Shown: positions 17,606 to 41,606 of the stretch, piece after piece
Layout of the letters: the number at the start of each line of letters is the position of its first letter
Numbering within the stretch: position 1 is the first letter of the stretch
Virus record (IMG/VR): IMGVR_UViG_3300001533_001980
Location: 1-52,455 of that record
DNA: 52,455 nt
Direction: 5' to 3' (one strand)
Source of the DNA: a virus
Translations under genes and position numbers: made by a program
The notes under the pieces: generated by a model
What the model was told of the DNA's origin: nothing
What the model saw: the letters and a program-made list of their open reading frames with translations, nothing else
Databases searched by the model: none

Positions 17606-17633
17606 TCAGAATCCTGACGCCGTTGTGCAATGA
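17606..17633 (+). promoter_or_regulatory. 28-bp element TCAGAATC-N11-GTGCAATGA, copy A
   Basis: First of six copies with identical 11-nt spacing. It ends 17 nt before ATG 17651 and is followed by AGGGGCGTGAGGA, which includes the ribosome site. A T-rich tract precedes it. Conservation is in the two outer blocks, not in the spacer. Likely a promoter or regulator site; an alternative is a recombination site. Confidence 0.65.
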
Positions 17634-17650
17634 AGGGGCGTGAGGACGAA

Positions 17651-18784
17651 ATGAGTGAGATGTATCATTGCCCGAATTGCAGAAAAGCAACAGACGCAAG
17701 CCAAATCCTTGTGATGAATGGGATTGACGATGTTTTAACAGTCAAGTGCGCATGTGGCTGGGCGGATACCCCGCTTGGAGTTCCCGCTCCCACTAATTGC
17801 TTTGTTGACTTTTCCATGTCAAATGGAACGTCCATTCGGTGCGTCGCAATTGTCCGTGACGGAATCAGGGTGGGCGTTGGTGCCATTTACGGACTAGAAA
17901 AGAATATACACGAGTGGCGTGCCTTCCAGGTACATGGCTCGTCTGTTACGGCTTTTCGATTCGATACGTCCAAAATATCGGTTATCCAGACGACGAGCAA
18001 GACCGAAACAGATTTTCACGGATGGCTCGTTGGGTTTGGTGGACTGGGTATGTTCAAACTCGGCGCGGATTCGGATACAGTAACCACTGGTAGTACCGAG
18101 TCCCAAGACATATTTTCCGTGTTGACCGTGGAATTAGATGATGGGTCTATTCGCCAATTGAAGTGGGACACTGTCGTATCGTGGTCTGGGCGGCTTATGG
18201 ACGCGGAAAAACAAATCCGTGAATACGTAGACTTAACACCTAAATGGCTATATGTGTGTCCGGCTTGCGGGAATCGGCATTTGAATGCTGATAATTGCAA
18301 CGTAGTCAGACTTGTTTGTGGCGGGTGTTCAGAGACATTTCTGGGAAGTGAGATGTGCCCTGTCTTGGTGGTACAGCCGTTTGTGGACAAAGCGGTACGG
18401 CAATTGATGGGGGCGACGCGGGATAAAAATAAACCACTAGCGGGTTGGGCTACATACGCAGCAGTTAGTTGTTGGATATGTGCATTCCTATGCTTAATTT
18501 GGCTCGCAATGCCGATCATCGCCTTTCTTTTCTTTTGCGCCGGTCTCACAGTCCTTATTATTAAGAAGGAGGTGGGGCTGTTTCCGCAGAATTACATCAA
18601 GAATAATCAGTCATCGATGGATTGTTCTAATTTTCGCAAAGCCCGGTCTGAACTCGAATCAATTCGCGCAAGCAATGCGATACTGAGTAACGATCTAAAA
18701 CCAGTATCTCGACTTGCGCAACGGATACTAAAAGATCAATTTGGAATCAATAAACCGTCGGAAGCTGCTTTTGGTGAAATATGA
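17651..18784 (+). CDS. Zinc-ribbon protein with C-terminal membrane hairpin
   Basis: About 377 residues from ATG 17651 (GTGAGGA site). An in-frame ATG at 17630 falls inside the conserved 28-bp element and would add seven residues. Zinc ribbons: CPNC plus CACG near the N-terminus, and CPACG plus CGGC near 203-225. Two membrane segments span about 265-310 (SCWICAFLCLIWLA and AFLFFCAGLTVLII). The middle is beta-rich. Possibly a membrane-anchored nucleic-acid or protein binder. The next gene has the same plan in smaller form. Confidence 0.6.
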   Translation: MSEMYHCPNCRKATDASQILVMNGIDDVLTVKCACGWADTPLGVPAPTNCFVDFSMSNGTSIRCVAIVRDGIRVGVGAIYGLEKNIHEWRAFQVHGSSVTAFRFDTSKISVIQTTSKTETDFHGWLVGFGGLGMFKLGADSDTVTTGSTESQDIFSVLTVELDDGSIRQLKWDTVVSWSGRLMDAEKQIREYVDLTPKWLYVCPACGNRHLNADNCNVVRLVCGGCSETFLGSEMCPVLVVQPFVDKAVRQLMGATRDKNKPLAGWATYAAVSCWICAFLCLIWLAMPIIAFLFFCAGLTVLIIKKEVGLFPQNYIKNNQSSMDCSNFRKARSELESIRASNAILSNDLKPVSRLAQRILKDQFGINKPSEAAFGEI

Positions 18785-19296
18785 TTTTTAAGTGCAAGCA
18801 TTGCAACCGTGATGTCAAAGTGCCCGTAGAGTGTCTTGGTTTGGATGGGGAATGTCCTTATTGCGGCATGGCGGTCAAATTCGGCCCGCCGGTTCTCCGG
18901 GAGCCACCTTCTTTATTTAAGAAGCAATTATCTTGCCGCTATAGTCCTAAGATTTTTTTAATTGCCCTACTGGTAGTTGCTGCATCGCTTGTGTGCATCT
19001 TTGAGCCCGATAGCAATACTAATTCTTCGCGCGGCGCATCATTGCGGAGATACAGTGATACGCAACGGTGGAATAAAGCCCGAGTATACGTCCAAGCGTA
19101 TCTAAGGGGTGACCCGTGTGTGAGGATACGCCTGCCGACGCATAACGATGCTTATAGTGATGGAAAAGGAGGTAGTCATTACATGGTGTCGGGATATCTG
19201 GAATGTCAAAACGTATATGGAGCGATGATTCGCAAGCGATATGTCGTTCGGATGGATATGAAGGATTTGTCCCTGTTGGAACTGTCTCTCCGGTGA
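18781..19296 (+). CDS. Small zinc-ribbon membrane protein
   Basis: 171 residues, overlapping the preceding stop (ATGA). An N-terminal ribbon with CKHC and CPYCG, one membrane segment (about 59-75, FLIALLVVAASLVCIF), and a C-terminal domain containing Y-V-Q-A-Y-L-R and H-Y-M-V-S-G-Y. The design matches bacterial zinc-ribbon membrane proteins of unknown role, so a host origin is possible. It is co-transcribed with the gene at 17651. Confidence 0.55.
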   Translation: MIFKCKHCNRDVKVPVECLGLDGECPYCGMAVKFGPPVLREPPSLFKKQLSCRYSPKIFLIALLVVAASLVCIFEPDSNTNSSRGASLRRYSDTQRWNKARVYVQAYLRGDPCVRIRLPTHNDAYSDGKGGSHYMVSGYLECQNVYGAMIRKRYVVRMDMKDLSLLELSLR

Positions 19297-19342
19297 TTTC
19301 CTTTGAACCGTAGTGGGTAAACATTTATTTTCAAAAAGGTGG

Positions 19343-19371
19343 TTGACACCAAATCGGTTTCGTGATAGGTT
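19343..19371 (+). promoter_or_regulatory. Promoter TTGACA-17-TAGGTT
   Basis: A perfect TTGACA (19343-19348), a 17-bp spacer, and TAGGTT (19366-19371), 9 nt before the start of the 42-residue gene that precedes TnpB. A similar TTGACA box lies at 44902 before the TnpB relic, so this could be a TnpB-element left-end feature. Confidence 0.5.
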
Positions 19372-19379
19372 CTTGAAAA

Positions 19380-19508
19380 ATGAATAAGCACGCACAAGCA
19401 TTAGGCAGGCTGGCAAAGGGGAAGCCGAAGACTTTGACGAAAGCTGAAATCGACAGGAGAACCAAGCAGCTTGCCGAATCTCGCAAGAAGAGATGGTCCA
19501 AGAAATGA
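19380..19508 (+). CDS. 42-residue basic protein
   Basis: It encodes MNKHAQALGRLAKGKPKTL and ends AESRKKRWSKK. The pattern of Ala-Leu-Gly followed by Thr-x-Ala-Glu and a terminal AxxRxxRW is common in small phage and plasmid proteins of unknown function. Its stop overlaps the likely TnpB start (ATGA at 19505), so the two are coupled. Confidence 0.5.
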   Translation: MNKHAQALGRLAKGKPKTLTKAEIDRRTKQLAESRKKRWSKK

Positions 19509-20560
19509 TTGTCCGAACACTCAAACTCAAGCTGACGAAATCCCAGGAGGTCACTCTTGATGGCTGGCTTTGGAATCTTACTGGCGTATGGAATTTTGCG
19601 ATTCGCAAGATAGAGTTGGATGCTCGTGACAAGGTTTACCATTCACAGAATTACCTTCGGAATCTACTCTCTAATCACTCCAGTCGGTTAGGTATACCCT
19701 CTCACACATTGCAGGGCATGCTTTCACAGGCGTATCTGGCGTGGCAAAGATGTTTCCAAAAGAAAGCCAAGAAGCCAAGGCTCAAGGGAAACCGAAATAA
19801 ACTGAATTCCATTCCCTTCCCTGATCCATTACGACCACCCAAGGACAACAGGATTGCCATTCCCGGACTTGGCAAGGTTAGATGCTACAAGCAAGACTTG
19901 CCGGAAGTCAGAATCAAGTGCGGCAGAATAGTAAAGCGGGCTTCGGGTTGGTATTTCTGTCTCTGGATTGATACGGTGCATTCATTCCTCGTTCAAGATA
20001 CTGATAAAGCCGTTGGGATTGATCCAGGTTTCGATACCCTGCTTACCCTGTCCGACGGAACAAAGATAGAGAATCCCCGTGAGTTACGTAAGGGAGCGGC
20101 AAGGCTTGCTCAAGCCCAACGAGAACATGACAAGAAGTTGACAGCAAGGTTGCTTGATCGGCAAGCAAACAGAAGGCGTGACAGAAATCACAAAATCTCA
20201 AGGAAACTGGTCGAAGAAAACAAGACTATTTACTACAGCGATGACAACTTCAAAGGAATGGCAAGGAGATTCGGAAAGTCGGTTACGGAAGCAGGGTTGA
20301 ACCAACTGATTGCTATGATGAACTACAAGGGCACTGCAAGCGGTAGAGAAGTTATTCCAGTCAATTCATTTAGAACCACCATGACTTGCTCGGCTTGTGG
20401 GGCCTTAAGTGGCCCTACGGGATCGAGCGGGCTTGCGGTAAGGAATTGGGAATGTTCTGCTTGTGGGGCAGTTCACGACAGGGATATCAACTCTGCCGTG
20501 ACAGTTCTTAATACTGGGCTGGGAATCAGCCACGAGAGGAGATTAAGCAATGCAGCCTAA
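19505..20560 (+). CDS. tnpB: TnpB-like RNA-guided nuclease homologue, altered RuvC site
   Basis: 351 residues from ATG 19505 (ATG 19493 adds four). RuvC-I is GIDPGFDTLLTL with Asp at about 173. The RuvC-II segment is IYYSDDNFKGM, where family members have E at the position of Ser 245. The zinc ribbon is CSAC and CSAC, and RuvC-III is HDRDINSA with Asp. The missing Glu suggests a nuclease-weak or dead protein unless a neighbouring Asp substitutes. TnpB cuts DNA with a guide from the element's right end. No tnpA is nearby. The right-end hairpin is at 20571. Confidence 0.85.
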   Translation: MIVRTLKLKLTKSQEVTLDGWLWNLTGVWNFAIRKIELDARDKVYHSQNYLRNLLSNHSSRLGIPSHTLQGMLSQAYLAWQRCFQKKAKKPRLKGNRNKLNSIPFPDPLRPPKDNRIAIPGLGKVRCYKQDLPEVRIKCGRIVKRASGWYFCLWIDTVHSFLVQDTDKAVGIDPGFDTLLTLSDGTKIENPRELRKGAARLAQAQREHDKKLTARLLDRQANRRRDRNHKISRKLVEENKTIYYSDDNFKGMARRFGKSVTEAGLNQLIAMMNYKGTASGREVIPVNSFRTTMTCSACGALSGPTGSSGLAVRNWECSACGAVHDRDINSAVTVLNTGLGISHERRLSNAA

Positions 20561-23041: not shown

Positions 23042-23701
23042 ATGATTGTCATATGTTCACAGCAAGCGTTAAATCCAGCAGGAGTTGCTCGGGTATGCCG
23101 TGAAAATCCCAGCGAAGAAGTTTATGCGCTACCCTGGGTGACGAATTCGAGTGAGTTAGATGAAAACTTCAAGGCTAACAGGACAAGTCCGAATCGGATG
23201 CTGCCGTGTGTCCCAAACAAGGAACACGCGGAAGGGGAAAGTCTGAATTTCTATGACCGCCTTGAAGACGATGCTTTCGGAACTATGGCGGATGCCTTGG
23301 CCCACGGAGCACTGGTTCTCAATGAGATAATGAAGCCTTCGTGCGAGAGCGCATTCTACGGAAGGGTGTTATCTCCGGGGTGGGTTCCTAACTCTGTCGC
23401 CATTATGAACAGCACGACGGCGGATCGTCTCATCCCATGTGAGCCCTTATCCGCTAGGCTATACGCCATGACGACGGTGCCAGTTATGGTGAAATGTACG
23501 AGTGATTTCAAAGAATCGACGGGATGCTCGGTCGAAGAAATTCCAGTTTTGTTGGCAACAGATTTCATTCCGCGCATCGGGGCTTTTATGCAGTTCTACA
23601 AGTTGTTTTCGGGAAAGGACTGTGTTTTTTCCGCCCCCATCGAGGACTTTTCTGGTCATTTACCCCTCCGGTGGAGGTATAATCGGGCATACAAGGTGTG
23701 A
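23042..23701 (+). CDS. Hypothetical protein upstream of the polymerase
   Basis: 219 residues from ATG 23042 (the frame is open from TTG 23012). The N-terminus, MIVICSQQALNPAGVARV, resembles a Rossmann-type first strand and helix. No catalytic motif is recognised. The stop is 1 nt from the polymerase start, and the promoter-like GGTATAAT (23676) lies in its last codons. Confidence 0.5.
   Translation: MIVICSQQALNPAGVARVCRENPSEEVYALPWVTNSSELDENFKANRTSPNRMLPCVPNKEHAEGESLNFYDRLEDDAFGTMADALAHGALVLNEIMKPSCESAFYGRVLSPGWVPNSVAIMNSTTADRLIPCEPLSARLYAMTTVPVMVKCTSDFKESTGCSVEEIPVLLATDFIPRIGAFMQFYKLFSGKDCVFSAPIEDFSGHLPLRWRYNRAYKV
23676..23684 (+). promoter_or_regulatory. Promoter-like GGTATAAT
   Basis: TATAAT at 23678-23683, 19 nt before the start of the N-terminal polymerase gene, within the upstream coding sequence. 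It is related to the GTGTATAAT sites. Confidence 0.4.
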
Positions 23702-23702
23702 A

Positions 23703-25334
23703 ATGCTAGAAGACTTCTACGATAAGTATGACGTTCCCATTGGGGATAGGATTCCATTGGAGAAAAATATCCTCCTCGTGGTTCCGTCCCCCAAGTACGA
23801 CATATCGGAAGCGGTGAATGGACTGGGAGTATCTCGCTATGAGGTTGCCGTTACGTGGCCCAAAGACTCGATTGACATGCTCGCCGAAATTTGTGCGATG
23901 AAACCCAAGTTCGTTATCCAGTGTGGGCGCGGAATCACTCGCAAATTCCCCGCTGCCGAGACGGATGCGGAATTTAAGTGCTTTCGAGATAGGGCAATAG
24001 CCGCGACCGCTGATTCATTTGTCGGGCTTCACCACCATGACGAATTCAGCATTCGTGATGGGCTGGGGACGGTGAAGAGTCTGGTGGAATTGCTAAAAAA
24101 ACAGCGTCGATCTTTCTGTTGCGTGTCGAATCACGGGACGGTTGGCGGGTGGGTTCGCCAATATAGAGCGTGCAAGAGCGCGGGAGTGAAGCCAATTTTT
24201 GCCATGGAGGCGTATGTCTCCTCGTACCGGGGAGACGATGCCGAGCGTAAGAAAAAACATCGCAAGGCAAACCATCTTCTCTTGATTGCCAGGACGAGAG
24301 AGGGGTTCGACAACATCATTCGCATTCACAATGACGCGCAACTCAATGGGTTCTATTACAGTCCTCGTGTAGACCGAAAAGCAATTCGCAAGTGGGGCAA
24401 GGGCATATGTGCGACTTCGGCGTGTATGAAAGGCGAATTGCCCGAACTTCTCATGGAGAATCAATACCATCGCGCTCGCCGTCTGTATGAATTTTACGCT
24501 AAGTGTTTTGACCAGTTCTACATTGAGGTTCAGATTATCGAATGCGAGATGCAACGGGAGGTCAATCGAAGGCTTGTCAAGTTCGCACAGGACGTAGGGG
24601 CACCTTTGGTGATTGGTTGCGACTCCCATTACCTTGAGCCAGAACACGATTCTACCCACAACATTCTCATGTGTATTCGTCAGGGCAAGACTGTTATGGA
24701 GCAGAAGGAGCGTGACGATATTTGGGAATTCGACGTTGGAAACCTCTACTATCGAAATGCAGAGCAAGTTCGCCGTGGATTCTACAAGCCCTTCAAGGAG
24801 AAGGGGGCGGACTCAGAATCTCCTGCATTTTGCGACGATGTATTCACGGATGAAGTGTTCGAGTCCGCTATGGCGAATACTCGACTTATTGCCGTGGATT
24901 CCGAGATTATTGAGCTGGATTCTACCATTCGGCTACCTTGTCTGTATCCTGACGGGCGCAGTATTTTGCGCAATAAGGTCAACGATGGCTTCAGACGCAG
25001 GGGGCTCGATAATGGGTCGTCATATCTGGCTCAAGATGGTAAAAAAGTGAAGATTCCAGCTCAAGCATATATAGACAGACTGTGTATGGAGTTCGATGTC
25101 ATAACCAAGTTAGGATGGACGGACTATTTCCTGATCGTTGAAAAGATTGTCTCTGACGCCAAGGCAAAATACGGAGAATGGGTTGTTGGGATGGGGAGAG
25201 GAAGTGCAGCCGGTTCGGTGGTGTGTTATTGCCTTGGGATTACAGATGTAGATCCGCTCGTACATGGTCTTCTTTTCGAGCGATTTCTCTCGGCAGACAG
25301 AGTTGGAATTTCCGCTTGCTCTTTTGAGGTGTGA
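23703..25334 (+). CDS. dnaE: DNA polymerase III alpha-like, N-terminal part (PHP + first palm)
   Basis: 543 residues, ATG 23703 after AAGGTGTGA. The PHP domain begins near residue 108 with GLHHHDEFSIRDG, and VSNHGTV and CDSHYL supply further PHP residues. The palm start is present: YIDRLCMEFDVITKLGW, then GMGRGSAAGS (about 496-505), then GITDVDPLVHGLLFERFL. It ends 15 residues later, before the catalytic PDIDxDF motif. It therefore supplies PHP and nucleotide-binding parts but no catalytic Asp. The missing part is encoded 4 nt downstream. Confidence 0.9.
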   Translation: MLEDFYDKYDVPIGDRIPLEKNILLVVPSPKYDISEAVNGLGVSRYEVAVTWPKDSIDMLAEICAMKPKFVIQCGRGITRKFPAAETDAEFKCFRDRAIAATADSFVGLHHHDEFSIRDGLGTVKSLVELLKKQRRSFCCVSNHGTVGGWVRQYRACKSAGVKPIFAMEAYVSSYRGDDAERKKKHRKANHLLLIARTREGFDNIIRIHNDAQLNGFYYSPRVDRKAIRKWGKGICATSACMKGELPELLMENQYHRARRLYEFYAKCFDQFYIEVQIIECEMQREVNRRLVKFAQDVGAPLVIGCDSHYLEPEHDSTHNILMCIRQGKTVMEQKERDDIWEFDVGNLYYRNAEQVRRGFYKPFKEKGADSESPAFCDDVFTDEVFESAMANTRLIAVDSEIIELDSTIRLPCLYPDGRSILRNKVNDGFRRRGLDNGSSYLAQDGKKVKIPAQAYIDRLCMEFDVITKLGWTDYFLIVEKIVSDAKAKYGEWVVGMGRGSAAGSVVCYCLGITDVDPLVHGLLFERFLSADRVGISACSFEV

Positions 25335-25338
25335 ACGC

Positions 25339-31701: not shown

Positions 31702-31763
31702 GTATACGAATTTTTCCTCAAAAGATAGTCGACTATAGTGATGTATGGTGATATCTTGGTATT

Positions 31764-31826: not shown

Positions 31827-32899
31827 CAATCACCCGTACATCCAGATTTGCTTTGAAGTTTTCCAATTCTGGAAAGCGAAAGCAACTGCTTGATTTCGTC
31901 AATGAATATGTCAAGGTGGTCAATGCCATCATTGAACTGCTTTGGCAGGGCAAGGTTTTCAAGGGATCATTCGTATCAAAAGATATTCTATCACAAGTTG
32001 ACACTTGGCTTTCAGCAAGAGCATTGCAGGCTTGCGGCAAACAGGCTTTACAAGCGGTCAAATCACAACGAAAGCGCAGGAAGAAAACAATGCCTGTTGT
32101 CAGGTCTCAAACGGTTGAACTTGACCAGCGTTTTGTTTCCTTCATTGATGCCGATTCATCCTTCGATGAGTTTGTGAAGTTTTCGTCACTTGGGAACAAA
32201 CTAATTGTCGTTTGTCCGATCAAACACCACAGGCACTACAACGACCTTGTCTCTCGTGGTTTCAAGCGATCTAAGTCAACAAGGCTTACTGTCGTTAATG
32301 GCAGCCTGTATCTCGATGTCATACTCGAAAGAGAAGCCATACCCATTAAGTCAGGCAAAACCATCGGGATTGACATGGGTATCAAGAAACTGATGGTTGA
32401 TTCAGATGGCAATGAGTACGGCAAGGACATTGAAAGACTGCTGGACAAAGCTAACAGAAAGCAGTTCAAGTCTAGGGCGTTTGACAGGGCTTTAGCCGAA
32501 AGAGATGCCTATATCAATGCTGCCGTCAAGCAATTACCTCTTGCCAATGTCGTCATTGAAGATTTGGCAGGCTTGGACAAAAACACTAAGAAAAGGCTTA
32601 GAAAGCCATTCAGAAAGAAAGTCCATCGCTGGACTTATGCTAATCTCATAAAGTCGGTGGAAAGATATACAGAAGTAGTTGGAGTCCAATGTCTGCATGT
32701 CAACCCGGCTTATACATCGCAGACCTGTAGTAAATGCGGGTTTATTCACAAGTCAAACCGAGATGCTGAGTTATTCGAGTGTGGGAATTGTGGCTACACA
32801 GCGGATGCAGACTTTAATGCGTCTTTGAATATCTTGAATCGGTCACTGGCCCAGCAAAATATGGTCGCTGGAAGTACGAAAGCAAACATTCAACTATGA
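31823..32899 (+). CDS. tnpB: TnpB RNA-guided nuclease, intact catalytic triad
   Basis: 358 residues. RuvC-I GIDMGIKKLMVD (Asp about 184), RuvC-II VVIEDLAGLD (Glu about 246), zinc ribbon CSKCG and CGNCG, and RuvC-III ADADFNAS (Asp about 330). All three acidic residues are present, unlike the TnpB at 19505. The sequence is of a different subfamily. The omegaRNA would come from its 3' end, with a guide starting at about 32909 in the split zinc-finger gene. Confidence 0.88.
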   Translation: MTITRTSRFALKFSNSGKRKQLLDFVNEYVKVVNAIIELLWQGKVFKGSFVSKDILSQVDTWLSARALQACGKQALQAVKSQRKRRKKTMPVVRSQTVELDQRFVSFIDADSSFDEFVKFSSLGNKLIVVCPIKHHRHYNDLVSRGFKRSKSTRLTVVNGSLYLDVILEREAIPIKSGKTIGIDMGIKKLMVDSDGNEYGKDIERLLDKANRKQFKSRAFDRALAERDAYINAAVKQLPLANVVIEDLAGLDKNTKKRLRKPFRKKVHRWTYANLIKSVERYTEVVGVQCLHVNPAYTSQTCSKCGFIHKSNRDAELFECGNCGYTADADFNASLNILNRSLAQQNMVAGSTKANIQL

Positions 32900-32908
32900 A
32901 GTTTGCAA

Positions 32909-33088
32909 CTATGGAAGTCGGGAAGGATGACTCGAACGGGTGCCTATCGGGAATTGGCTCGCATCCTTGAAATACCGCCCGAGCGGTTTGATAAAGACGC
33001 CCATATCGCCCGCCTTGACAGTGATCAATGTTGTGCCGTTATATCCGCCTTCAATTCCATGCGACCGTGGAAAGTGCCCCGTTTCTGA
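32909..33088 (+). pseudogene. Zinc-finger protein (DUF3268-like), 3' part, interrupted
   Basis: It starts LWKSGRMTRTGAYRELARIL and contains HIARLDSDQCCAVI, the usual C-terminal half of DUF3268 proteins (a GMTRxxAYxxLA helix and an I-x-x-x-D-x-x-Q-C motif). It is separated from its 5' part by the TnpB element. A TTG at 32903 could start a short product. Confidence 0.65.
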
Positions 33089-33095: not shown

Positions 33096-33123
33096 TCAGA
33101 ATCTACTGCGACTTGTGCAATGA
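33096..33123 (+). promoter_or_regulatory. 28-bp element TCAGAATC-N11-GTGCAATGA, copy B
   Basis: It follows the zinc-finger gene stop by 7 nt and precedes the gene at 33172. A GATTTTATC tract lies upstream and AGGAGCGTGAGG downstream. The spacer shares TGCGACTT with copy C. Confidence 0.65.
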
Positions 33124-33171: not shown

Positions 33172-33543
33172 ATGAAAATCAGAATGAACCACACCTCAAT
33201 AGGCGATGGATACCTGACCACGGATCATCCATCCAGCAGCTATAATATCCCTGTATTTGTGGACGATGACGGGAATGCGTATGGACCCGGTGACAAATTT
33301 CCACGATTCAATTGCAATGTCGGGTATCTTCATCAAGCGGAGGAGGTGGAATACACAGCCGAAGAAATTCAGTGGGTGCATGACTACATCGTGCGCACTA
33401 ATTTAAGCGATTGCGAGACGAGAACAGGAGCCAGAATGGATAGCCGTTGGCGGGTTTGGCTATTCGGTGAGACATGGAAAACAGCAGGGCAACTTGCCGA
33501 GATTGAGCGGATCAATGGCAAAAAGATGATTCGCAACCGGTAA
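33172..33543 (+). CDS. Hypothetical small protein
   Basis: 123 residues, ATG 33172 after AAAAAAGGATAACTCGG. It contains VDDDGNAYGPGDKFPRF and a helical C-terminal half. No family recognised. It is bounded on both sides by copies B and C of the 28-bp element, so it forms a 457-bp unit. Confidence 0.5.
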   Translation: MKIRMNHTSIGDGYLTTDHPSSSYNIPVFVDDDGNAYGPGDKFPRFNCNVGYLHQAEEVEYTAEEIQWVHDYIVRTNLSDCETRTGARMDSRWRVWLFGETWKTAGQLAEIERINGKKMIRNR

Positions 33544-33552: not shown

Positions 33553-33580
33553 TCAGAATCCATTGCGACTTGTGCAATGA
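33553..33580 (+). promoter_or_regulatory. 28-bp element TCAGAATC-N11-GTGCAATGA, copy C
   Basis: Located 9 nt after the stop of the preceding gene. It is followed by AGGGTTGTGAAGA and then, 39 nt on, by a GGAGGAAGC-ATG start at 33619. Confidence 0.65.
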
Positions 33581-33618: not shown

Positions 33619-33699
33619 ATGAAGACAGCAACAGAGTTTTGGGAGGCGCAGCAGTTAGCTAAAGACGAGGTTGTTGGCAATTCTGGAGGTGGACAATGA
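33619..33699 (+). CDS. 26-residue ORF
   Basis: MKTATEFWEAQQLAKDEVV... with a good GGAGGAAGC ribosome site. An in-frame ATG inside the copy C element (33577) would add 14 residues. The stop overlaps the next start (ATGA). Confidence 0.4.
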   Translation: MKTATEFWEAQQLAKDEVVGNSGGGQ

Positions 33700-33959
33700 A
33701 CTACACAAAGACCGTATTGATGCCGATTGACGTTCCTGACTGCGGGTACTGTCGGGAGCCGGGAACCCCGTATCGCATCTGCGAGCACTTCGACAACGAG
33801 GGCGGGCACCCTACGTGCGAGCTAAACTTGGGGTCGCTAAAGTATGCCGATGACGGTGGAGTGCGGAAACCGGTCGGTGTGCTTCACTTGCTGGCGCATC
33901 CTTCACCCTTCGCGGTGAAGCGAAGCGGAACTCCCGATAGCGGTGGAAGGAGTTGTTAG
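33696..33959 (+). CDS. Small Cys/His protein
   Basis: 87 residues, GGAGGTGG upstream. CGYC and CEHF...HPTCEL suggest a zinc site in the first 45 residues. The last 25 residues are low complexity and may be out of family. Function unknown. Confidence 0.45.
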   Translation: MNYTKTVLMPIDVPDCGYCREPGTPYRICEHFDNEGGHPTCELNLGSLKYADDGGVRKPVGVLHLLAHPSPFAVKRSGTPDSGGRSC

Positions 33960-33961
33960 GC

Positions 33962-34186: not shown

Positions 34187-34662
34187 GCATAAAATCAAGC
34201 GACTTGTTCGCCGTTGGCGACGAGGTACAGATCAAGGTCGGTGCGTCTGCGTGGATGAAGGAGCATAACTACTGGATTGCCGATTGGCCGGAGTCTATTG
34301 ACGGTATGGCGGGAGTTATTGCGAACGACTACACGCAGTACGCCGGAAACGACTGCCACTACGAGGTTGTGATTGAAGGCGTGACCGGGTGCGGTGTGCA
34401 TCCGCAATGGTTGACGGCGAACGCGGCTGATTTGATCGTGAAGACAGGTGAATCGAATTGTTGTCACGAAGACTTCATCTGCTGTGGCCGCGAGATGACT
34501 CCTACAGGCTTTCAATTTGGCAACGGTTGGGAGTGTGACGTTTGCGGACACCGTGAGTTCGACGTAGCATCGTTCAAGATGGGCGGCAACTACGAAGAGT
34601 ATTTGAGGACGAGCGACAATGCCTGTGCTACCTTCCCCGTTCGTGTTCAGGATCAAGGGTAA
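34183..34662 (+). pseudogene. Hypothetical protein with 3' end altered by an insertion
   Basis: About 159 residues from ATG 34183 (AAAGGAGCG). The middle has a KOW/SH3-like strand pattern, and the end holds CCHEDFICCGREM and CDVCGH zinc ligands. At 34600-34624 it enters the 25-bp direct repeat, and past it reads 12 foreign codons before a stop. With the right-hand repeat (39212) the native end would be EYLRTSDNA then stop. The host gene is thus nearly intact; the insertion falls at its last codons. Confidence 0.6.
34600..34624 (+). repeat. 25-bp direct repeat, left copy
   Basis: Starts TATTTGAGGACG and ends GCGACAATGCCT; identical to 39212-39236. It marks the left boundary of the GC-rich restriction-modification insert. 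Confidence 0.9.
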
Positions 34663-34693
34663 CCTCGCTTTGCTCGGTCGCTAGAGAATTCGA

Positions 34694-34828
34694 ACCACGG
34701 ATTACACTGAGCACACGGATTAATGTGTAAACATCTATCCTGAAACACCTTGCGAATCATTTTGTCACTGGCTACAAGCAGTGCCCATAACCCCATCCCG
34801 AATCCGTGTATTCCGAGTAATCCGTGGT
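34694..34828. repeat. Imperfect inverted repeat pair
   Basis: ACCACGGATTACACTGAG begins the left arm (34694-34721), and the right arm (34800-34828) is its near reverse complement ending TAATCCGTGGT. They enclose about 80 nt with no gene. Such ACGGATTAC repeats are scattered in some bacterial chromosomes, supporting a host origin of the insert. Confidence 0.65.
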
Positions 34829-34901
34829 CAGAAAATCCCCCATCCACAACAGTTTTCTCTTGACGGTGCATCCCCGTCACGCGGTTACAGGTTCCCATAC
34901 A

Positions 34902-35057
34902 TTACTGCGCATCATTGCACGGGGTGGTGGAGACCTCCAAGTCGGCGGCAATGGCCTTCATCGGGGCGCCCCTTGCCTTCCGCCAGGACCGCAGCGCGTG
35001 CCCGAGCTTGGCTCGCGCACAGTCGCGGTTTTCGTTCTGTCGTTGTTCGCCTCGCAT
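34902..35057 (-). pseudogene. Truncated XRE-type HTH fragment
   Basis: 51 residues. LGHALRSWRKARGAPMKAIA then ADLEVSTT matches the first half of a Cro/C1-type helix-turn-helix, then breaks off. It lies just downstream of the restriction-modification gene, where such regulators or controllers often sit. Confidence 0.45.
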
Positions 35058-35073
35058 GGCTTCATGCTCCCCA

Positions 35074-38000
35074 TCAAAAGAAAGGCGCGCATTCGCGCTT
35101 GCCGTCAAACGCCTCCGGCCAGCCGCCGTGCGCCTCAATGGTCTGGTCTATGGCGTTCATCAGCCGGATCGTCTCGTGCAAGGCGACGACGATTTTCTGG
35201 TAGTGCTGGATGTCGGCGTAGTCGAGGGTGCGGCCCTTTCGGTCTTTGAGCCACTTTTCGCAGACCTGGTAGCCGCCGACGCGGAAGTTCCAGACGTCTG
35301 CCGGAATGCCGCCGAAATATTGGGTGGCGTTGATGTGGACGCGGCCGGTGGGGTCGGGGGACGCGGACGGTAATGAGGAGAATGCAGGCGGGACGCCCGC
35401 ACCACTTTCTTCCGACGGCAGGCAAGATGCCTGCACCACGTTAAAGATGACTCGGTCAACTTCGTTGGTGCCTTTTTCGGGGAAGTCGGTGATGAAGTGA
35501 TCGAGATTGGGGGATTGCAGGAGATGCAGGGCGACGAGGTCGACGCCATGTGCGGCGAGGCGGAAGAAGAGGTCGTGGTCGGCGGTGAGGGGCAGGCGCG
35601 GGAAGTCGATTTTGAGGAATTCGGCGTAACGCTCGCGATAGGTCGGCGAATGGAGGATGGCGTAGGCGTAGTGGAAGATGTCTTCGGGCGTGAACCGGGC
35701 GGGTGCTGACGCTGACGCGGCGGGCGCAGCGACAAACGGGATGCCAAGCCGCTTTTCGAGATCGGCTATGAACTTTGGATTCAGGTTCGGACGTCGCCCG
35801 CCGGAGATATCAAGCTCGTCGCCCTCGGGGTGGAGGTAGAGGGGGAAAGCGGTGTTGATGTCGTAGGCGGCAACGGACTTATGAGCCGCCAGCGCGTTTG
35901 TGCAAAGAAGCCCGAACGGTTCCTCGGTCTTGCGGGTGGTTAGTATCGCCAGATTGTCGCCGTCGGGATGGAGGTAGAGGGGGAAAGCGGAGGTTATCTC
36001 ACGCGTGCGATTTGACACGCTACAGCATTCGGAAATAGCAGACGAACAGAAGACATGGACATAGTCACCGGCAATCACTTGGCGGCAGGCCAGTAGCGAA
36101 AGGTTGTCGATGGTCATGTGTCGCATGACCGGGCGTGCCGGCGTGCCGATGAATCCGCGCGATTGGCCGCTGTACCAGGTGTGGCGAAGGTCGAACGGGC
36201 GATACAAGATCGGCTGGAAACAGGTGTCTTCGCGGTTTTTGGCCACATCCGCCTTGGCTTTGGCGACTTGCCAGTCGCGGCTGTCTTTGTGCAGATCATA
36301 GCGGGTGCGGATCGCGTTTTCGTCGAGTGTGCGGAAATCCTCCACGACTCGCCGGATGCCTTCTTTCGTGAAATGGATGGATAAACGATCACGCTCGGTT
36401 TTGACGGCATTACCGGAAACCGTGAAGACCTCGCGCAAGGACCAGCCGCGCTCGTATTCTTCCCGGCTGCGGTCGTCCTTGGGCACGAAGAAGTGATAGG
36501 GCTCGTTCGGGGCGAGTTCGGTCCAGGGGGTGGTTTCGGCGTCGTTTTCCCAGAGCCAGTGGTATTTGCCGCCGACGAGCCGGTCGTCTTCGTAGAGGGC
36601 GCGGCGGCCCCAGAGGTCGGCGTGGTATACGCGGGCCAAGGTAGACGCGGCGTCACGCCGCGTTGGAACGAGGCGGGACGCCGCGTCTACTTTGTTTTTC
36701 ACCGCCAGGAGGATGGATACGCCGACGGTGATGTCGAAGACGTTTTCGTCCTTGCCGCCGTCGGGAGTCCTTTCCTTCTTCTTGGAACTGCCATGCAGGT
36801 TGAGGACATAGATTTCGTCGAAGGATTCGAGCAGGCTTTGGCGCATGCGGCGATGGGTGATGCCGTCGAGGTAGCTGTTGTTGGTGATGAAGCCGACGAT
36901 GCCGTGGCCGGTCTGGTCAATGCGCCATTGGGCGAAGCGGATGAACTTGATGTAGTCGTCGTCGAGGTTGAGCTTCTTCTCGTTGAGGTCGCGTTTGTAG
37001 TCGGCCAGCAGCCCGAGAATCCAGGGGTTGCGGTTCATCTGGCCGAAGTTGGAATAGGGCGGATTGCCCATGACGACCATGATCTCGCGGTCGCGCTTGA
37101 TTTCGGCGGCGGCGTTGGCTTCGCGCGAAATGAACTGGCCGAGCAGCATCTCGGAGCGCTTGGCGGCTTCTTCGAGGGTGTTGGTGAGGTAGATGCCGAG
37201 CCGCTGGTCGCTGCCGAAGGTGTAGCCGGTGGTTTCGAGTTGCATGCTGAGCTTGAGGTGGGCGACGGCATAGGGGGCCATGAGCAGTTCGAAGCCGAAC
37301 AGGCGCGGCAGGAGATGGCGGCCGACATAGCCGTCCCTCACGCCGCGCTGACGCTGGAACGCCTCCTGGATACGCTCGATGGCGAAGTACAGGAAGGTGC
37401 CCGTGCCGGTGGCCGGGTCGAGGATGAGGGTGTTTTCGTCGGCCAGTCCCCTGGGACGGTCGAGGCGGGTCTTGAGCAGCCAGTCGAGCGAGCGGACGAT
37501 GTAGCGGACGACGGGTTCGGGGGTGTAGAAGACGCCGCGCACGTCGCGCAGGGCCGGATCGTAGGCGGCCAGGAAGGTTTCGTAGAAGTGGACGACGGGG
37601 TCTTCGCGGCCTTTGCACTTGCCGAAATCGCGCAGGATTTCGCCCATGTCGGCGTGCGCGAGCAGGGCGACCATGTCGTTGACCGCCCAGGCGATGGTGT
37701 CGGGCATGCGCGCACCAGCGATCTGCTCGAAGAGCAGGCGCAGGAAGGGATTGGTGCGCGGCAGGTACTGGGCGGCGGAGAGGCGGGAGAAGGGCTTGCT
37801 GGGGGCCTGTGCGCGGGCGGCGAAGAGGCCGTAGGCCAGCGTCTGGGCGAACATGTCGGCGAAGGCGTGCTCGTCGAGATCGGGAATCAGGGTCTCGCGA
37901 AAGGCGGTCAGCCATTCGTTCAGCCAGACATCGGGAGTGCCATAGCCGGGCATGGTCTCGTGGACGGCCCGCGTGTCGGCGGACTTCTGCCGCTCCTTCT

Positions 38001-38559
38001 CGTCCCGCAGCGTGGCCAGCAGGAGGTCGCGCAGCATGCGCGTGAACCCGGCCATGTGGCGGGCCAGATCACGGGCCGTGGAGACAGTCAGGGCGGGCTG
38101 GGTATAGAACGCCGTGAGGAAGGCGGTGAGTTGCGCCGCGCCGTCGGGCACGGGCTTGAGACGCCCCTTGGCATCGAAATCGGCCACGCGCAGGGTCAGC
38201 CGCTTCTCGCCGGCGGCATACCAGCGGAATTCAAGGTAATCGGTCAGCACCCAGTTCGGCAGGGTGGCATAGCGCAGGAACTGCCCACCGTTCGGCCCCT
38301 TGCCGCGCTCCATCTCATCGAGGTTGACGCCGACATCCTTGGTCTCGATATGCCCGACCGGCACACCATTGCGCGTGATGTTGAAATCCGGGGCGCCGCA
38401 GGCGATGCGGCGGGGCTCGTTGGTGGCGACGATGCCGGGGTCAACGGCTTCGAGCAACGCCTTCAGCGCCGGGCGGTGCGTATGCTCGGTGGCGTCACCG
38501 CGCTCGATATTCGCGCGCAGGTCGCGTATGTAGTCGCCGAATGTGCTATGGTTGGGCAT
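35074..38559 (-). CDS. Type ISP-like restriction-modification enzyme (nuclease + N6-adenine MTase + TRD)
   Basis: 1161 residues from ATG 38559; the frame is open from 38712, but the MPNHSTFGDYIRDLRANI start fits the family. N-terminal PD-(D/E)xK-type nuclease: GAPDFNITRNGVPVGHIETK (about 55-75). Methyltransferase motif I DPATGTGTFL (near 370) and motif IV NPPYSNF (near 490). The C-terminal half is a target-recognition region. No helicase domain is present, unlike LlaGI-type ISP enzymes, so it is a single-chain enzyme that cuts and methylates. Two palindromic insertions lie in frame within it. Confidence 0.8.
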   Translation of the reverse strand: MPNHSTFGDYIRDLRANIERGDATEHTHRPALKALLEAVDPGIVATNEPRRIACGAPDFNITRNGVPVGHIETKDVGVNLDEMERGKGPNGGQFLRYATLPNWVLTDYLEFRWYAAGEKRLTLRVADFDAKGRLKPVPDGAAQLTAFLTAFYTQPALTVSTARDLARHMAGFTRMLRDLLLATLRDEKERQKSADTRAVHETMPGYGTPDVWLNEWLTAFRETLIPDLDEHAFADMFAQTLAYGLFAARAQAPSKPFSRLSAAQYLPRTNPFLRLLFEQIAGARMPDTIAWAVNDMVALLAHADMGEILRDFGKCKGREDPVVHFYETFLAAYDPALRDVRGVFYTPEPVVRYIVRSLDWLLKTRLDRPRGLADENTLILDPATGTGTFLYFAIERIQEAFQRQRGVRDGYVGRHLLPRLFGFELLMAPYAVAHLKLSMQLETTGYTFGSDQRLGIYLTNTLEEAAKRSEMLLGQFISREANAAAEIKRDREIMVVMGNPPYSNFGQMNRNPWILGLLADYKRDLNEKKLNLDDDYIKFIRFAQWRIDQTGHGIVGFITNNSYLDGITHRRMRQSLLESFDEIYVLNLHGSSKKKERTPDGGKDENVFDITVGVSILLAVKNKVDAASRLVPTRRDAASTLARVYHADLWGRRALYEDDRLVGGKYHWLWENDAETTPWTELAPNEPYHFFVPKDDRSREEYERGWSLREVFTVSGNAVKTERDRLSIHFTKEGIRRVVEDFRTLDENAIRTRYDLHKDSRDWQVAKAKADVAKNREDTCFQPILYRPFDLRHTWYSGQSRGFIGTPARPVMRHMTIDNLSLLACRQVIAGDYVHVFCSSAISECCSVSNRTREITSAFPLYLHPDGDNLAILTTRKTEEPFGLLCTNALAAHKSVAAYDINTAFPLYLHPEGDELDISGGRRPNLNPKFIADLEKRLGIPFVAAPAASASAPARFTPEDIFHYAYAILHSPTYRERYAEFLKIDFPRLPLTADHDLFFRLAAHGVDLVALHLLQSPNLDHFITDFPEKGTNEVDRVIFNVVQASCLPSEESGAGVPPAFSSLPSASPDPTGRVHINATQYFGGIPADVWNFRVGGYQVCEKWLKDRKGRTLDYADIQHYQKIVVALHETIRLMNAIDQTIEAHGGWPEAFDGKRECAPFF
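35388..35434. repeat. Paired palindromes inside the R-M coding sequence
   Basis: GCGGG-ACG-CCCGC (35388-35400) and GCAGGCA-AGA-TGCCTGC (35418-35434) form two hairpins 17 nt apart. On the minus strand they encode VQASCLPSEESGAGVPPA in frame. The form is that of interspersed palindromic repeats that insert in coding regions. Confidence 0.65.
36641..36690. repeat. 14-bp inverted repeat inside the R-M coding sequence
   Basis: GTAGACGCGGCGTC (36641-36654) and GACGCCGCGTCTAC (36677-36690) are perfect inverted repeats around a 22-nt loop. On the minus strand it encodes VDAASRLVPTRRDAAST, a stretch that looks foreign between methyltransferase and recognition segments. Confidence 0.7.
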
Positions 38560-38707
38560 AAGGTGACAAGCGACCTTCCAGTTCCGAGATATTCTCCGAT
38601 ACATGTGCCAACAAATCGTCAGCCGTCGTCCATTCGGGGTCTTCCAGATCGGCTCTGGCATAGGCCAGCCAATCGCGGGGATTCCAGGAGTCAGTCTTTC
38701 TCGGCAA
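38546..38707 (-). pseudogene. Truncated HEPN-domain ORF
   Basis: About 53 residues if read from TTG 38707: TDSWNPRDWLAYARADLED, then DDLLAHVSENISELEGRL. It resembles the first helix pair of HEPN proteins that pair with MNT nucleotidyltransferases, but the RNase motif (R-x4-6-H) and the second half are missing. It overlaps the ends of both neighbours. Confidence 0.35.
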
Positions 38708-39050
38708 GACACACCCCCTCACGCAGGATGGTTTCGAAAAAAGGATCGCGAATGTGGCGTTTCTCGGCCAAACGTTCCAGAGATATCGGCACCTGGTTCA
38801 AGGCAGGCTTGTTGCGGATGCGTCCGATGGCCCGGCGCAGGGTGCGTGCCGTCGACTGTTGCGTCTCGATCCCGTTCGTGACGATACACAGGTCGATATC
38901 GCTTTCCGGCGCGTTCTCGCCACGCGAATACGATCCGAAAAGCAAAACGCGCTCGACATGCAGGACCTCATCGAATGCCTGAATGCACGCCTGCAATCCA
39001 TCCGCATGCGCGTGCAACGCTTCCGCCATTCGTTCTGATCGAACTTTCAT
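38691..39050 (-). CDS. MNT-type nucleotidyltransferase
   Basis: 119 residues from ATG 39050 (frame open from 39122). The signature GSYSRGENAPESDIDLCIV gives the GS-x10-DxD site of the Pol-beta nucleotidyltransferase superfamily. In MntA-HepT systems this protein is the antitoxin that modifies a HEPN toxin. Here the downstream HEPN-like ORF is truncated, so the pair is probably broken or the ORF is used differently. Confidence 0.75.
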   Translation of the reverse strand: MKVRSERMAEALHAHADGLQACIQAFDEVLHVERVLLFGSYSRGENAPESDIDLCIVTNGIETQQSTARTLRRAIGRIRNKPALNQVPISLERLAEKRHIRDPFFETILREGVCLAEKD

Positions 39051-39211
39051 CGTTTTCTCTAATTCACGAGGCACTTCGCGTCGGCAAGACAACACAGCTC
39101 CGCCTTGTGCTAATCTCGCCAACCTAAGCCATCCCTAAATCGATGGCAAGGTTTGTTTGCTGACAGTTTTTTTGCAGACCTGCAGAGTATCTTGCAAAAC
39201 CCACTGGTAAC

Positions 39212-39236
39212 TATTTGAGGACGAGCGACAATGCCT
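39212..39236 (+). repeat. 25-bp direct repeat, right copy
   Basis: Identical to 34600-34624. Read with the left host gene it restores EYLRTSDNA and a TAA stop (39235-39237). Confidence 0.9.
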
Positions 39237-39325
39237 AATGCACGGTTTACGAGCGTACCGCTATTGGCGTGTCATCCGATGTGCGTCAGATACAACGACT
39301 GGTTAGAAGGCAGAGGTACCAACCT

Positions 39326-39890
39326 ATGAAATTGGGCGACAGAATAAAGCGATACGAGGCGGTAAGCCACTACACAGCAACCGGCAGAACTCCGCTGATG
39401 ATTCGGGTGGACGGCAGGGCTTTTCACACGTTCACGCGAAGCATGGACAGGCCGTTTGACCAGAATCTGATCGACGCGATGGTGAATGCGGCCCGCGATG
39501 TTGCTGCCGAAATGCAGGGCTTCAAAGCGGCTTATATTCAATCCGATGAGGTGACGTTCTGCGTAACCGACTACGACAGGATTGAGAGCCAAGGCTGGTT
39601 CGACTACGACTTGATGAAAGTGGTGTCAATTTCAGCAGCACTGATGGCTGTGAGGTTTATCCGGCACCTGGGCACCGCAAAGACCCCTGTGTTTGATGGG
39701 CGGGCTTTTTCGGTGCCAGGCGACCGACCTGACGCCGCAGCAGAAGAACGGTACGTTCTTGATTCAGGGCGAGGACGGCATTGCAGAGCGACACGACATT
39801 CTGCCGACCTACGACGCTGTAAACGCTGGAATTGGCACCCTGTTTGAGATGCCTTCTAACACGGCATTAACCAACAAGGAGAATATATGA
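39326..39890 (+). pseudogene. Decayed Thg1-like tRNA-His guanylyltransferase
   Basis: Residues 1-130 (MKLGDRIKRYEAV, RTPLMIRVDGRAFHTFTR, then AYIQSDEVTF with the catalytic carboxylates) clearly match Thg1, which adds G to the 5' end of tRNA-His by 3'-5' polymerisation. After FSVPGD the frame shifts: the matching C-terminal piece (DLTPQQKNGTFLIQGEDG, HDILPTYDAVN) is in another frame at about 39730-39890. The central about 80-100 residues are missing. An internal deletion with frameshift is inferred. The nominal stop of the N-terminal frame is at 39847. Confidence 0.65.
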
Positions 39891-40012
39891 GCCTTGTTGT
39901 CTTCTGGTTTGCCTACGCAGACCCGTCGGGGGAGAATTCTTTCAGAATCTTAACTCTCTCGTGCAATGAAGAGGGAGAGGACACGATAGACGGCAAAACT
40001 AAGGAGCACTGA
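39887..40012 (+). CDS. 41-residue ORF overlapping a 28-bp element
   Basis: MSLVVFWFAYADPSGENSF..., ATG 39887 after AACAAGGAGAAT. Copy D of the 28-bp element lies inside it, encoding FRILTLSCNEE. It may be a real small gene or chance. Its stop overlaps the next start. Confidence 0.4.
   Translation: MSLVVFWFAYADPSGENSFRILTLSCNEEGEDTIDGKTKEH
39942..39969 (+). promoter_or_regulatory. 28-bp element TCAGAATC-N11-GTGCAATGA, copy D
   Basis: It ends 42 nt before ATG 40012, followed by AGAGGGAGAGG. It is the only copy inside a plausible small ORF. Confidence 0.6.
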
Positions 40013-40212
40013 TGAAAGTAATGCGAGACTGGGCGGACAATGAAGAGCTTATGGTTGCGGTTACTGAGGCAATGAGTACCGGCGACATTGCCGATGAATT
40101 CGGGGTGGAGGTAGACGCCCGAAACGAGGAAGGCTCTTACGGCGAGCGGGGCTACATCGAACTGAAGTACGACGGGCGCAGGTTTCGTCTGGCGTTGGAA
40201 GAATTGCTTTAG
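40012..40212 (+). CDS. Hypothetical 66-residue acidic protein
   Basis: AAGGAGCACTG precedes ATG 40012. It contains ELKYDGRRFRLALEELL at the end. No family recognised. Confidence 0.5.
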   Translation: MKVMRDWADNEELMVAVTEAMSTGDIADEFGVEVDARNEEGSYGERGYIELKYDGRRFRLALEELL

Positions 40213-40239: not shown

Positions 40240-40596
40240 ATGAGAATGTGGATGGTCAATCCTGTGTGGCTCTGTATGCAGCACCTTTCTGGTGAGCATA
40301 ATGAGATCCACAAACACAGGCACAATTTCGAGAAGGGGCATTCGATTGCGGGGCGTATCGCAATAAACGCCTGTGAGCCGATATCCATGAAAACGCGACA
40401 TGATGAGCTGGAAGCAGAGATACAGCGTAGGGCCAGGGTTGCCGGACGGAAGCCCCCGCATAGCCCGTATGAGATTCCTGACCTGTCTTATCTGTCTGAC
40501 GAACATCGGCAGCTTGACGACGATGTTGGGCTCCACGAGAACAATAAGCCCTGCGTTGAAGGTATGCGAAATCTGTCCTTCTCACGCCCCCTTTGA
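40240..40596 (+). CDS. Pyrimidine-dimer glycosylase/endonuclease V-like protein
   Basis: 118 residues. MRMWMVNPVWLCMQHLSGEH, an IHKHR segment, and RHDELEAEIQRR match the pattern of bacterial and phage proteins annotated as pyrimidine-dimer DNA glycosylase/endonuclease V (LCxxHLxGEHxExH then RHxxLxxEMxRR). These excise UV dimers. The assignment is by motif memory only. The stop is followed after 23 nt by copy F of the 28-bp element. Confidence 0.55.
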   Translation: MRMWMVNPVWLCMQHLSGEHNEIHKHRHNFEKGHSIAGRIAINACEPISMKTRHDELEAEIQRRARVAGRKPPHSPYEIPDLSYLSDEHRQLDDDVGLHENNKPCVEGMRNLSFSRPL

Positions 40597-40619
40597 CAGT
40601 TCAAAGATTGATTAAATTC

Positions 40620-40647
40620 TCAGAATATCATGTCTGTTCTGCAATGT
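40620..40647 (+). promoter_or_regulatory. 28-bp element, copy F (diverged: TCAGAATA-N11-CTGCAATGT)
   Basis: Same spacing as the other five, with three changes in the conserved blocks. It precedes an AGGAGG site and ATG 40668. Confidence 0.5.
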
Positions 40648-40667
40648 ATACAATAGGAGGACACGAT

Positions 40668-41261
40668 ATGAGCTATGAAAATTCACCAGCTTGCAAGCTT
40701 CTCTGTAGCCAATGTGTAATCTGTGGAAGGCCACTTGTTGACGCAAGAAGCTGTCAGATGGGAGTGGGTCCTGAATGCGTCAAGCGCATCGATGTGGATA
40801 TTACGGGCGGGATTGATGAAGGGACTCGCAAGGTCGCCAATAAGTACATTTACGATGCGGCTGTTGCAGCCCAAGAAGGGCGGATTGAAGAAGTTCTTCG
40901 GTGCGCGGAAACTATCGAGGGCATGGGATTGGAAAGTCTTGCCGACAAGATCCGTCATCGCTTTAAAAAGGCAGCAGAGCGCGAATCTTCTATCGTCATC
41001 GAATCCGACGGCGTCTTCTACAGAGTGAAGACTCCGTTTCGACGTGGCGACAAGAAAGCCTTCGTCGCTGCATGGCGCAAGATTCCGGGCAGGCGGTATC
41101 GAGACGAAGTCAACTTCGTTCCTATTAGTCAGAAGAAGGCTCTGTGGGAACTGTTGCGGGAATTCTTCGGTGGCAAGTATGGGCGTGGACCCAAGGGCGT
41201 GTTCCGCATACCCCAGCCGGAGCCGAAGCCCGTTCAAATGGAATTGGGCGTGACGGCATAA
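40668..41261 (+). CDS. Zinc-finger plus HARP-like domain protein
   Basis: 197 residues from ATG 40668 with AGGAGG 7 nt upstream; the frame is open from 40593. CVICGRPLVDARSCQMGVGPEC (about 16-37) is the DUF6011-like zinc finger common in phages. The C-terminal half, from GVFYRVKTPFRRGDKKAF to a W-x-x-L-x-x-F segment, resembles the HARP-like module at the N-terminus of the SNF2 protein (1423). Possibly a DNA-structure-binding accessory factor. Confidence 0.55.
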   Translation: MSYENSPACKLLCSQCVICGRPLVDARSCQMGVGPECVKRIDVDITGGIDEGTRKVANKYIYDAAVAAQEGRIEEVLRCAETIEGMGLESLADKIRHRFKKAAERESSIVIESDGVFYRVKTPFRRGDKKAFVAAWRKIPGRRYRDEVNFVPISQKKALWELLREFFGGKYGRGPKGVFRIPQPEPKPVQMELGVTA

Positions 41262-41307
41262 GTGGTGGAAATCCCCAAGGGCGTTCCGTAACATAAGGAG
41301 AAAGACG

Positions 41308-41460
41308 ATGGCCCATTTGATCGACCCCGAACAGTGAATGCAGGCATGGATGAAAACATGGGTACTGGCGAAGTACGCCTCCGGCAAAGAAGAGTGGCTG
41401 GAGCAGCACGTATGCGATTACGCATGGCAAACCGGGCAGATGGACGGATTGCGGACGTGA
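41308..41460 (+). pseudogene. Small ORF with an in-frame TGA
   Basis: MAHLIDPEQ, then TGA (41335), then MQAWMKTWVLAKYASGKEEW... in the same frame to a stop at 41460. AAGGAGAAAGACG precedes the first ATG. A TGG-to-TGA change is likely. The downstream 40-codon part has its own ATG at 41338. Confidence 0.4.
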
Positions 41461-41578
41461 CGTTTCAGGCCGTCACGCTTGCGCGAATGATTGCCCGTGA
41501 GTAGCGCCAACGAAAGCATGAAGCGCGGCGAGCCGTCGCTCGCAGGCGTGATGAACCAAGCAACGCAGAGTGATTCCG

Positions 41579-41606
41579 TCAGAATCTCGGTCGTTTGGTG
41601 CAATGA
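41579..41606 (+). promoter_or_regulatory. 28-bp element TCAGAATC-N11-GTGCAATGA, copy E
   Basis: It abuts the start of the next gene (ATG 41607 or 41613). If it is a promoter, the mRNA would be leaderless or nearly so. Confidence 0.6.

What the first reader, a model, noticed from the sequence alone, without database searches (positions are those of the whole stretch)
17606..41606. Six copies of a 28-bp element TCAGAATC-N11-GTGCAATGA ahead of accessory genes
Copies lie at 17606, 33096, 33553, 39942, 40620 and 41579, all on the + strand and with identical 11-nt spacing. Five match both blocks fully; 40620 differs at three positions. The blocks do not vary at codon third positions while the spacer varies freely, so selection is on DNA or RNA. 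Each copy sits before a gene or gene pair, often followed by an AGGG-GTGAGG ribosome site. It may be a promoter for the phage sigma or a regulator site. It also marks the edges of units in the 33-42 kb region, as a modular insertion or recombination site would. Read in one frame it encodes R-I-x5-C-N, usually followed by E, so a peptide explanation must be tested.
Basis: seen in the sequence. Interest (0 to 1): 0.85.

Follow-up and report, generated by a model that had tools for sequence, protein, structure and literature searches.

The report
Promoter family of an uncultivated phage
The repeated 28-base element is real and is most likely an "on" switch (promoter) that a large uncultivated phage places in front of its accessory genes, probably read by the phage's own sigma factor; in related phages all copies have changed in step, so a phage transcription code can be followed from sequence alone.

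Summary
In detail: five exact copies plus one with three mismatches, all on the + strand with an 11-nt gap; 0.17 expected by chance. It is a DNA signal: the peptide frame and RNA structure readings fail.

The closest relative (G005, 139.6 kb; polymerase 65% identical) has seven copies in which GTGCAATGA has mostly become CGCAATGA. De novo searches in two more distant relatives found their own versions: TTGGATTT-N13-GTAATACA (G003, about 15 copies) and CCTTATTC-N13-GTAATGTA (G009, 12 copies). The 40 sites align in register: G-AAT is nearly invariant, other letters are clade-specific, and an A/T-rich tract lies just upstream. Orthologous genes carry the element at the same place.

This is promoter anatomy: A/T-rich tract, -35, fixed spacer, -10, gene. 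The likeliest reader is the single ECF-like sigma factor (7052-7912), conserved in the family, acting with host RNA polymerase. That step is inferred: a second conserved motif (class B), and relatives that have the sigma but no detectable copies, keep rivals alive. Closest known: phiEco32 (tAATGTAtA) and phage 7-11 (GTAAtg-16-aCTA). A recombination-site role is not supported.

The parts
17606..17633 (+). element copy 1 (-35 TCAGAATC 17606-17613, -10 block GTGCAATGA 17625-17633); before gene 17651-18784 (377 aa, no clear family)
33096..33123 (+). element copy 2; before gene 33172-33543 (123 aa)
   Evidence: shares 43 nt at 84% with copy 3
33553..33580 (+). element copy 3; before a 26-codon frame at 33619 and gene 33696-33959 (87 aa)
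39942..39969 (+). element copy 4; before genes 40012-40212 (66 aa) and 40240-40596 (Pfam Pyr_excise, pyrimidine dimer DNA glycosylase)
40620..40647 (+). element copy 5, imperfect (3 mismatches); before gene 40668-41261 (family 1, DUF6011), whose orthologues in G005, G009 and G003 also carry the element
41579..41606 (+). element copy 6; before gene 41613-42140 (family 2); ATG lies 13 nt after the first G of GCAATGA, as in G009
7052..7912 (+). ECF-like sigma factor, the proposed reader of the element (Pfam Sigma70_r2, E 2.7e-12)
6964..6993 (+). possible host-type promoter of the sigma gene, TTGACA-N18-TAATTT
   Evidence: consensus match only

Best explanation
Each copy is a promoter. Host RNA polymerase core carrying the phage's own ECF-like sigma factor (7052-7912) binds the left block as a -35 element and the right block (GYAATRNA) as a -10 element, helped by the A/T-rich tract just upstream, and starts transcription roughly 6-8 nt after the -10 block, so that an accessory gene or small gene set is transcribed. 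The sigma gene itself is probably first transcribed from a host-type promoter, giving a cascade: host sigma, then phage sigma, then accessory genes. Shown here: the sites, their fixed spacing, strand, position before genes, conservation with clade-specific drift, the A/T tract, and one sigma region 2 protein per relative tested.
For: Six copies against 0.17 expected. Seven copies in G005, about 15 in G003 and 12 in G009, all on the strand of the genes they precede; the G003 and G009 versions came out of a dyad search that did not use the window motif. The 40 sites align in register: G0 40/40, A+2 38/40, A+3 40/40, T+4 40/40, A+7 37/40, T-15 39/40, while +1, +5, +6, -1, -16 and -19 are set by lineage, as expected for sites that follow a changing protein. 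The 12 nt upstream are A/T-rich, 0.727 against 0.551 at random upstream positions, 0 of 2000 draws. Orthologues of two gene families carry the element in three or four phages. No sigma-70-type promoter excess at 30-43 kb: 2 found, 7.6 in shuffles. Exactly one sigma region 2 match in each of six relatives, no multi-subunit RNA polymerase; the sigma profile matches SigW and SigE. In the stretch shared by window and G005 both keep this element, while class B is kept only in G005. Precedent: host RNA polymerase with a phage sigma at mapped promoters of phiEco32 and 7-11 (PMC8948821).
Against: No transcription data. The element was not detected in G002, G007, G011, G014 or G015, which carry the sigma; G011 and G014 are fragments and lack the accessory cluster, but G002, G007 and G015 are long. 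Sigma region 4 is not recognised by Pfam PF08281 in the sigma genes, and the candidate -35 helices differ between window and G005 although TCAGAATC is identical. Class B is conserved across the family and could be the sigma's target instead. Two copies are a duplication.
Confidence: 0.6

Rival explanations
1. It is a promoter, but the left block is bound by a separate phage activator (as MotA does at T4 middle promoters), with a modified or other sigma reading the right block; the phage sigma reads class B or another class.
For: Class B (ATAATTCTTTGATAT ... ATAGGTRG) is conserved across phages that share the sigma; the element is undetected in several sigma-bearing relatives; candidate -35 helices differ between window and G005.
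Against: The right block GCAATG is not a sigma-70 -10 element in the window; no candidate activator was identified; window and G005 share sigma and this element while the window has no class B match.
Confidence: 0.22
2. It is a binding site (operator) for a phage or host regulator near promoters that are otherwise unrecognised, rather than the promoter itself.
For: Two conserved blocks with a fixed gap also fit a DNA-binding protein; an exactly 11-nt gap puts the blocks about two helical turns apart.
Against: The blocks are not an inverted repeat, all copies are in the gene orientation, and no host-type promoters above chance lie in the region. The A/T-rich tract and the -10-like GTAATGTA of G009 fit a core promoter better.
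Confidence: 0.1
3. It is a recombination, insertion or module-boundary site.
For: Copies lie between units of variable accessory genes; copies 33096 and 33553 are a duplication.
Against: No inverted or terminal repeats at tested copies; real insertions nearby have other boundaries; copies precede orthologous genes in relatives at the same position; all copies changed together between lineages.
Confidence: 0.04
4. It is a conserved peptide or an RNA structure.
For: Read in one frame, the five exact copies give R-I-x4-C-N-E, and four of them end in a stop 11 codons after the R codon.
Against: No synonymous change at AGA, ATC, TGC, AAT or GAA in the exact copies; in relatives the same positions read R-N, S-N or G-N, and many copies have stops between the blocks; two window copies have stops 3-4 codons upstream. 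Mean folding z-scores per phage lie between -1.16 and -0.01.
Confidence: 0.01

Closest known systems
phiEco32 gp36 (ECF sigma) middle and late promoters, consensus tAATGTAtA (PMC8948821)
   Same: Phage-encoded ECF-type sigma with host RNA polymerase; a few highly conserved copies before non-early genes. The G009 right block GTAATGTATG is close to tAATGTAtA.
   Different: phiEco32 promoters have a single block and no -35; gp36 lacks region 4. The window's sigma has no specific similarity to gp36 (hhalign probability 1.3%).
Salmonella phage 7-11 gp47 late promoters, GTAAtg-(16)-aCTA (PMC8948821)
   Same: Two blocks with a fixed gap, eight promoters, read by a phage sigma with a region 4.
   Different: Block sequences and spacing differ; the sigmas align only over a short region 2 stretch (hhalign probability 25.6%).
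Bacterial ECF sigma promoters (SigW, SigE)
   Same: The sigma profile's best solved relatives are ECF sigmas; a -35 block, near-fixed spacer and -10 block are the usual layout (general knowledge).
   Different: The usual ECF -35 AAC motif and CGT-type -10 (general knowledge) are not seen; matches to ECF structures are weak.
T4 middle promoters (MotA box plus sigma-70 -10; general knowledge)
   Same: Two-block phage promoter.
   Different: The right block here is not a sigma-70 -10 element in the window, G005 or G003; no MotA-like protein was identified (not searched for specifically).

Membership tests
Promoters read by a phage-encoded ECF-like sigma (phiEco32 / 7-11 kind) | The phage encodes a sigma factor with region 2 | tested here: met
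   Sigma70_r2 E 2.7e-12 in the window; one match in each of six relatives
Promoters read by a phage-encoded ECF-like sigma (phiEco32 / 7-11 kind) | Repeated conserved blocks at fixed spacing upstream of genes, in gene orientation | tested here: met
Promoters read by a phage-encoded ECF-like sigma (phiEco32 / 7-11 kind) | A region 4 able to read a -35 block | tested here: inconclusive
   Pfam r4_2 not found in the sigma genes; a confident C-terminal helical domain is predicted, but the fold matches are weak
Promoters read by a phage-encoded ECF-like sigma (phiEco32 / 7-11 kind) | Transcription starts a few nt downstream, dependent on the sigma | not testable with these tools
   needs RNA 5' ends or in vitro transcription
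phiEco32 gp36 or 7-11 gp47 sigma family | Specific sequence relationship of the sigmas | tested here: not met
   hhalign probabilities 1.3% and 25.6%, short generic region 2 stretches
Host sigma-70 promoters | TTGACA / TATAAT hexamers in the accessory region | tested here: not met
   2 matches at 30-43 kb against 7.6 in shuffles, none at the copies
Promoters of a phage-encoded RNA polymerase | A multi-subunit RNA polymerase gene in the phage | tested here: not met
   PF00562 absent from six relatives while all 14 control genomes rang; the window itself is a fragment
Promoters of a phage-encoded RNA polymerase | A single-subunit (T7-type) RNA polymerase gene in the phage | tested here: inconclusive
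   PF00940 gave nothing, but no control genome rang either
Recombination or insertion site | Inverted or terminal repeats, element at insertion boundaries | tested here: not met
Peptide-coding repeat | Codon-level conservation in an open frame | tested here: not met

The most novel reading that the evidence does not exclude
An undescribed phage family carries an ECF-like sigma lineage whose two-block promoter specificity has changed between lineages (TCAGAATC..GCAATG, TTGGATTT..GTAATA, CCTTATTC..GTAATG), with all copies in each genome changing together, beside a second, nearly constant promoter class: a natural series of sigma-promoter co-evolution.
Probability: 0.5. Interest if true: 0.65.

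Novelty: new member of a known kind. Interest (0 to 1): 0.5.

Why it matters
If right, it assigns regulation to otherwise anonymous accessory genes in a family of large uncultivated phages. It also gives several sigma-promoter pairs of graded divergence for testing how a sigma factor's specificity evolves while all its sites stay in step, and shows that such expression units can be recognised without culturing the phage.

Tried and rejected
Exact IMG/VR scan of the motif: one hit, inside a coding gene of an unrelated phage, taken as chance. A single-sequence sigma query found no relatives; the profile did. EM seeded with the pooled motif found nothing convincing in G002, G007, G011, G014, G015, G008 or G010, nor did pairwise comparison of upstream regions. 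Peptide and RNA-structure readings rejected. A multi-subunit phage RNA polymerase was not found; the T7-type search was uninformative. Terminators in the accessory region are not above chance, 11 against 12.8, so promoter-gene-terminator 'moron' units are not shown. Host not identified.

Full report
1. Observation. reproduces the six copies at the given coordinates: five exact and one (40620) with three mismatches, all +, all with an 11-nt gap; 0.17 matches are expected by chance. The window is an IMG/VR virus record of 52,455 bp with nothing beyond it. The exact pattern occurs in only one other IMG/VR contig, inside a coding gene of an unrelated phage.

2. Relatives. The window's DNA polymerase III alpha retrieves a family of large phage contigs. 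Protein comparison shows that most of the window is syntenic with G005 (139.6 kb, inverted) and, for the core genes, with G002, G003/G004, G007, G009, G011, G014 and G015. All of these encode the sigma homologue next to the same replication genes.

3. The element in relatives. G005 has seven copies, all on its main coding strand, as TCAGAATC-N11-[mostly C]GCAATGA; one weaker copy (42116) lies just upstream of its sigma gene. A dyad search that did not use the window motif found TATTCTG-N11-GTAATGT in G009 (12 copies) and TTGGATT-N14-GTAAT in G003. In G003 this was one of many significant dyads and was picked because of its layout, so that case leans on its intergenic positions and on the orthologous genes. 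Aligned on the G of GYAAT, the 40 sites share G0, A+2, A+3, T+4, A+7, G+10, A-17 and T-15. Other positions are set by lineage: +1 is C in window and G005 but T in G003 and G009; +5 is A only in G003; -1 is T in the window, mostly C in G005, G in the other two. The register of the left block between distant phages is less certain, and four G003 sites fit a spacer one base shorter.

4. Position. Family 1 genes (window 40668, DUF6011) carry the element in the window, G005, G009 and G003; family 2 genes (window 41613) in the window, G009 and G003 but not G005. For family 2 the distance to the ATG is identical in window and G009, so short that the mRNA may have almost no leader (inference). The 12 nt upstream of the left block are A/T-rich (0.727 against 0.551; 0 of 2000 draws), where an UP element would lie. 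The 30-43 kb region has fewer sigma-70-type matches than shuffled DNA.

5. What it is not. In the R-I frame of the exact copies AGA, ATC, TGC, AAT and GAA never vary synonymously, the residues are not kept in relatives, and many relatives' copies have stops between the blocks. Folding energies are close to shuffled values. No inverted repeats at the copies tested. Real insertions nearby are bounded by other sequences.

6. Reader. Each of six relatives has exactly one sigma region 2 match. The profile's best solved relatives are SigW and SigE. The AlphaFold model is confident for region 2 and for a C-terminal helical domain but weak overall (mean pLDDT 71.6), and sigma factors dominate the fold matches, all at weak E-values. 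No multi-subunit RNA polymerase was found. Upstream of the sigma gene host-type promoters are plausible (TTGACA-N18-TAATTT in the window, TTGACA-N17-TAACTT in G005, TTGAAA-N16-TATAAT in G003), which suggests a cascade from host sigma to phage sigma to accessory genes.

7. Doubt. Class B (ATAATTCTTTGATAT ... ATAGGTRG) is nearly constant in the family but has no match in the window, and could be the sigma's target elsewhere. Window and G005 share the sigma and this element while only G005 has class B, which favours the present assignment. The sigma-bearing relatives without detectable copies, and the dissimilar candidate -35 helices of window and G005, weaken it. Hence about 0.85 for 'promoter of some kind' and 0.6 for 'promoter of this sigma'.

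8. Known systems. phiEco32 gp36 promoters (tAATGTAtA) and phage 7-11 gp47 promoters (GTAAtg-16-aCTA) are experimentally mapped phage-sigma promoters (PMC8948821; see also PMC4331800, whose earlier 7-11 prediction differs). The G009 right block is close to the phiEco32 element, but the sigmas are not specifically related and the present element has two blocks. It works like those systems; membership in those sigma families was tested and not met.

Noticed in passing
G005 (e.g. record positions 69243, 91093, 118303, 131521, all -), G009:3790, G006:4492 and 17038, G012:8259 and 15818, G002:44529: Second conserved motif, class B: ATAATTCTTTGATAT followed by about ATAGGTRG, just before genes in many members of the family; no match in the window. 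Probably another promoter class.
   Followed up: partly
window 34600-39236: About 4.6 kb block with a 1212-aa methylase-like gene on the - strand, between 25-bp direct repeats TATTTGAGGACGAGCGACAATGCCT: looks like an insertion with a long target duplication.
   Followed up: partly
window 31471-33088: A gene homologous to G005 17027-17449 is interrupted by a TnpB-like (IS605 OrfB) gene at 31823-32899; another TnpB-like gene (Cas12f1-like TNB domain) lies at 19493-20560.
   Followed up: partly
window 23502-27627: DNA polymerase III alpha is in two overlapping parts that both encode the GRGSAAGS...GLLFERFL stretch; in G005 a homing-endonuclease-like gene lies between the parts, and G006, G012 and G014 also have it split.
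   Followed up: no
window 7018-7051: Conserved small hairpin GCCGATTATCGGC just before the sigma gene, with similar GCCGA...TCGGC in G005, G011, G007 and G003; phage 7-11 also has a hairpin before its sigma gene. Possible control of sigma expression.
   Followed up: no
window 39325-39889: tRNA-His guanylyltransferase-like (Thg1) frame, by eye only, apparently shifted near 39700.
   Followed up: no
window 1-220: 48-bp tandem repeat ACGATGGTTAATTGACTCGGATGG... at the left end of the record.
   Followed up: no
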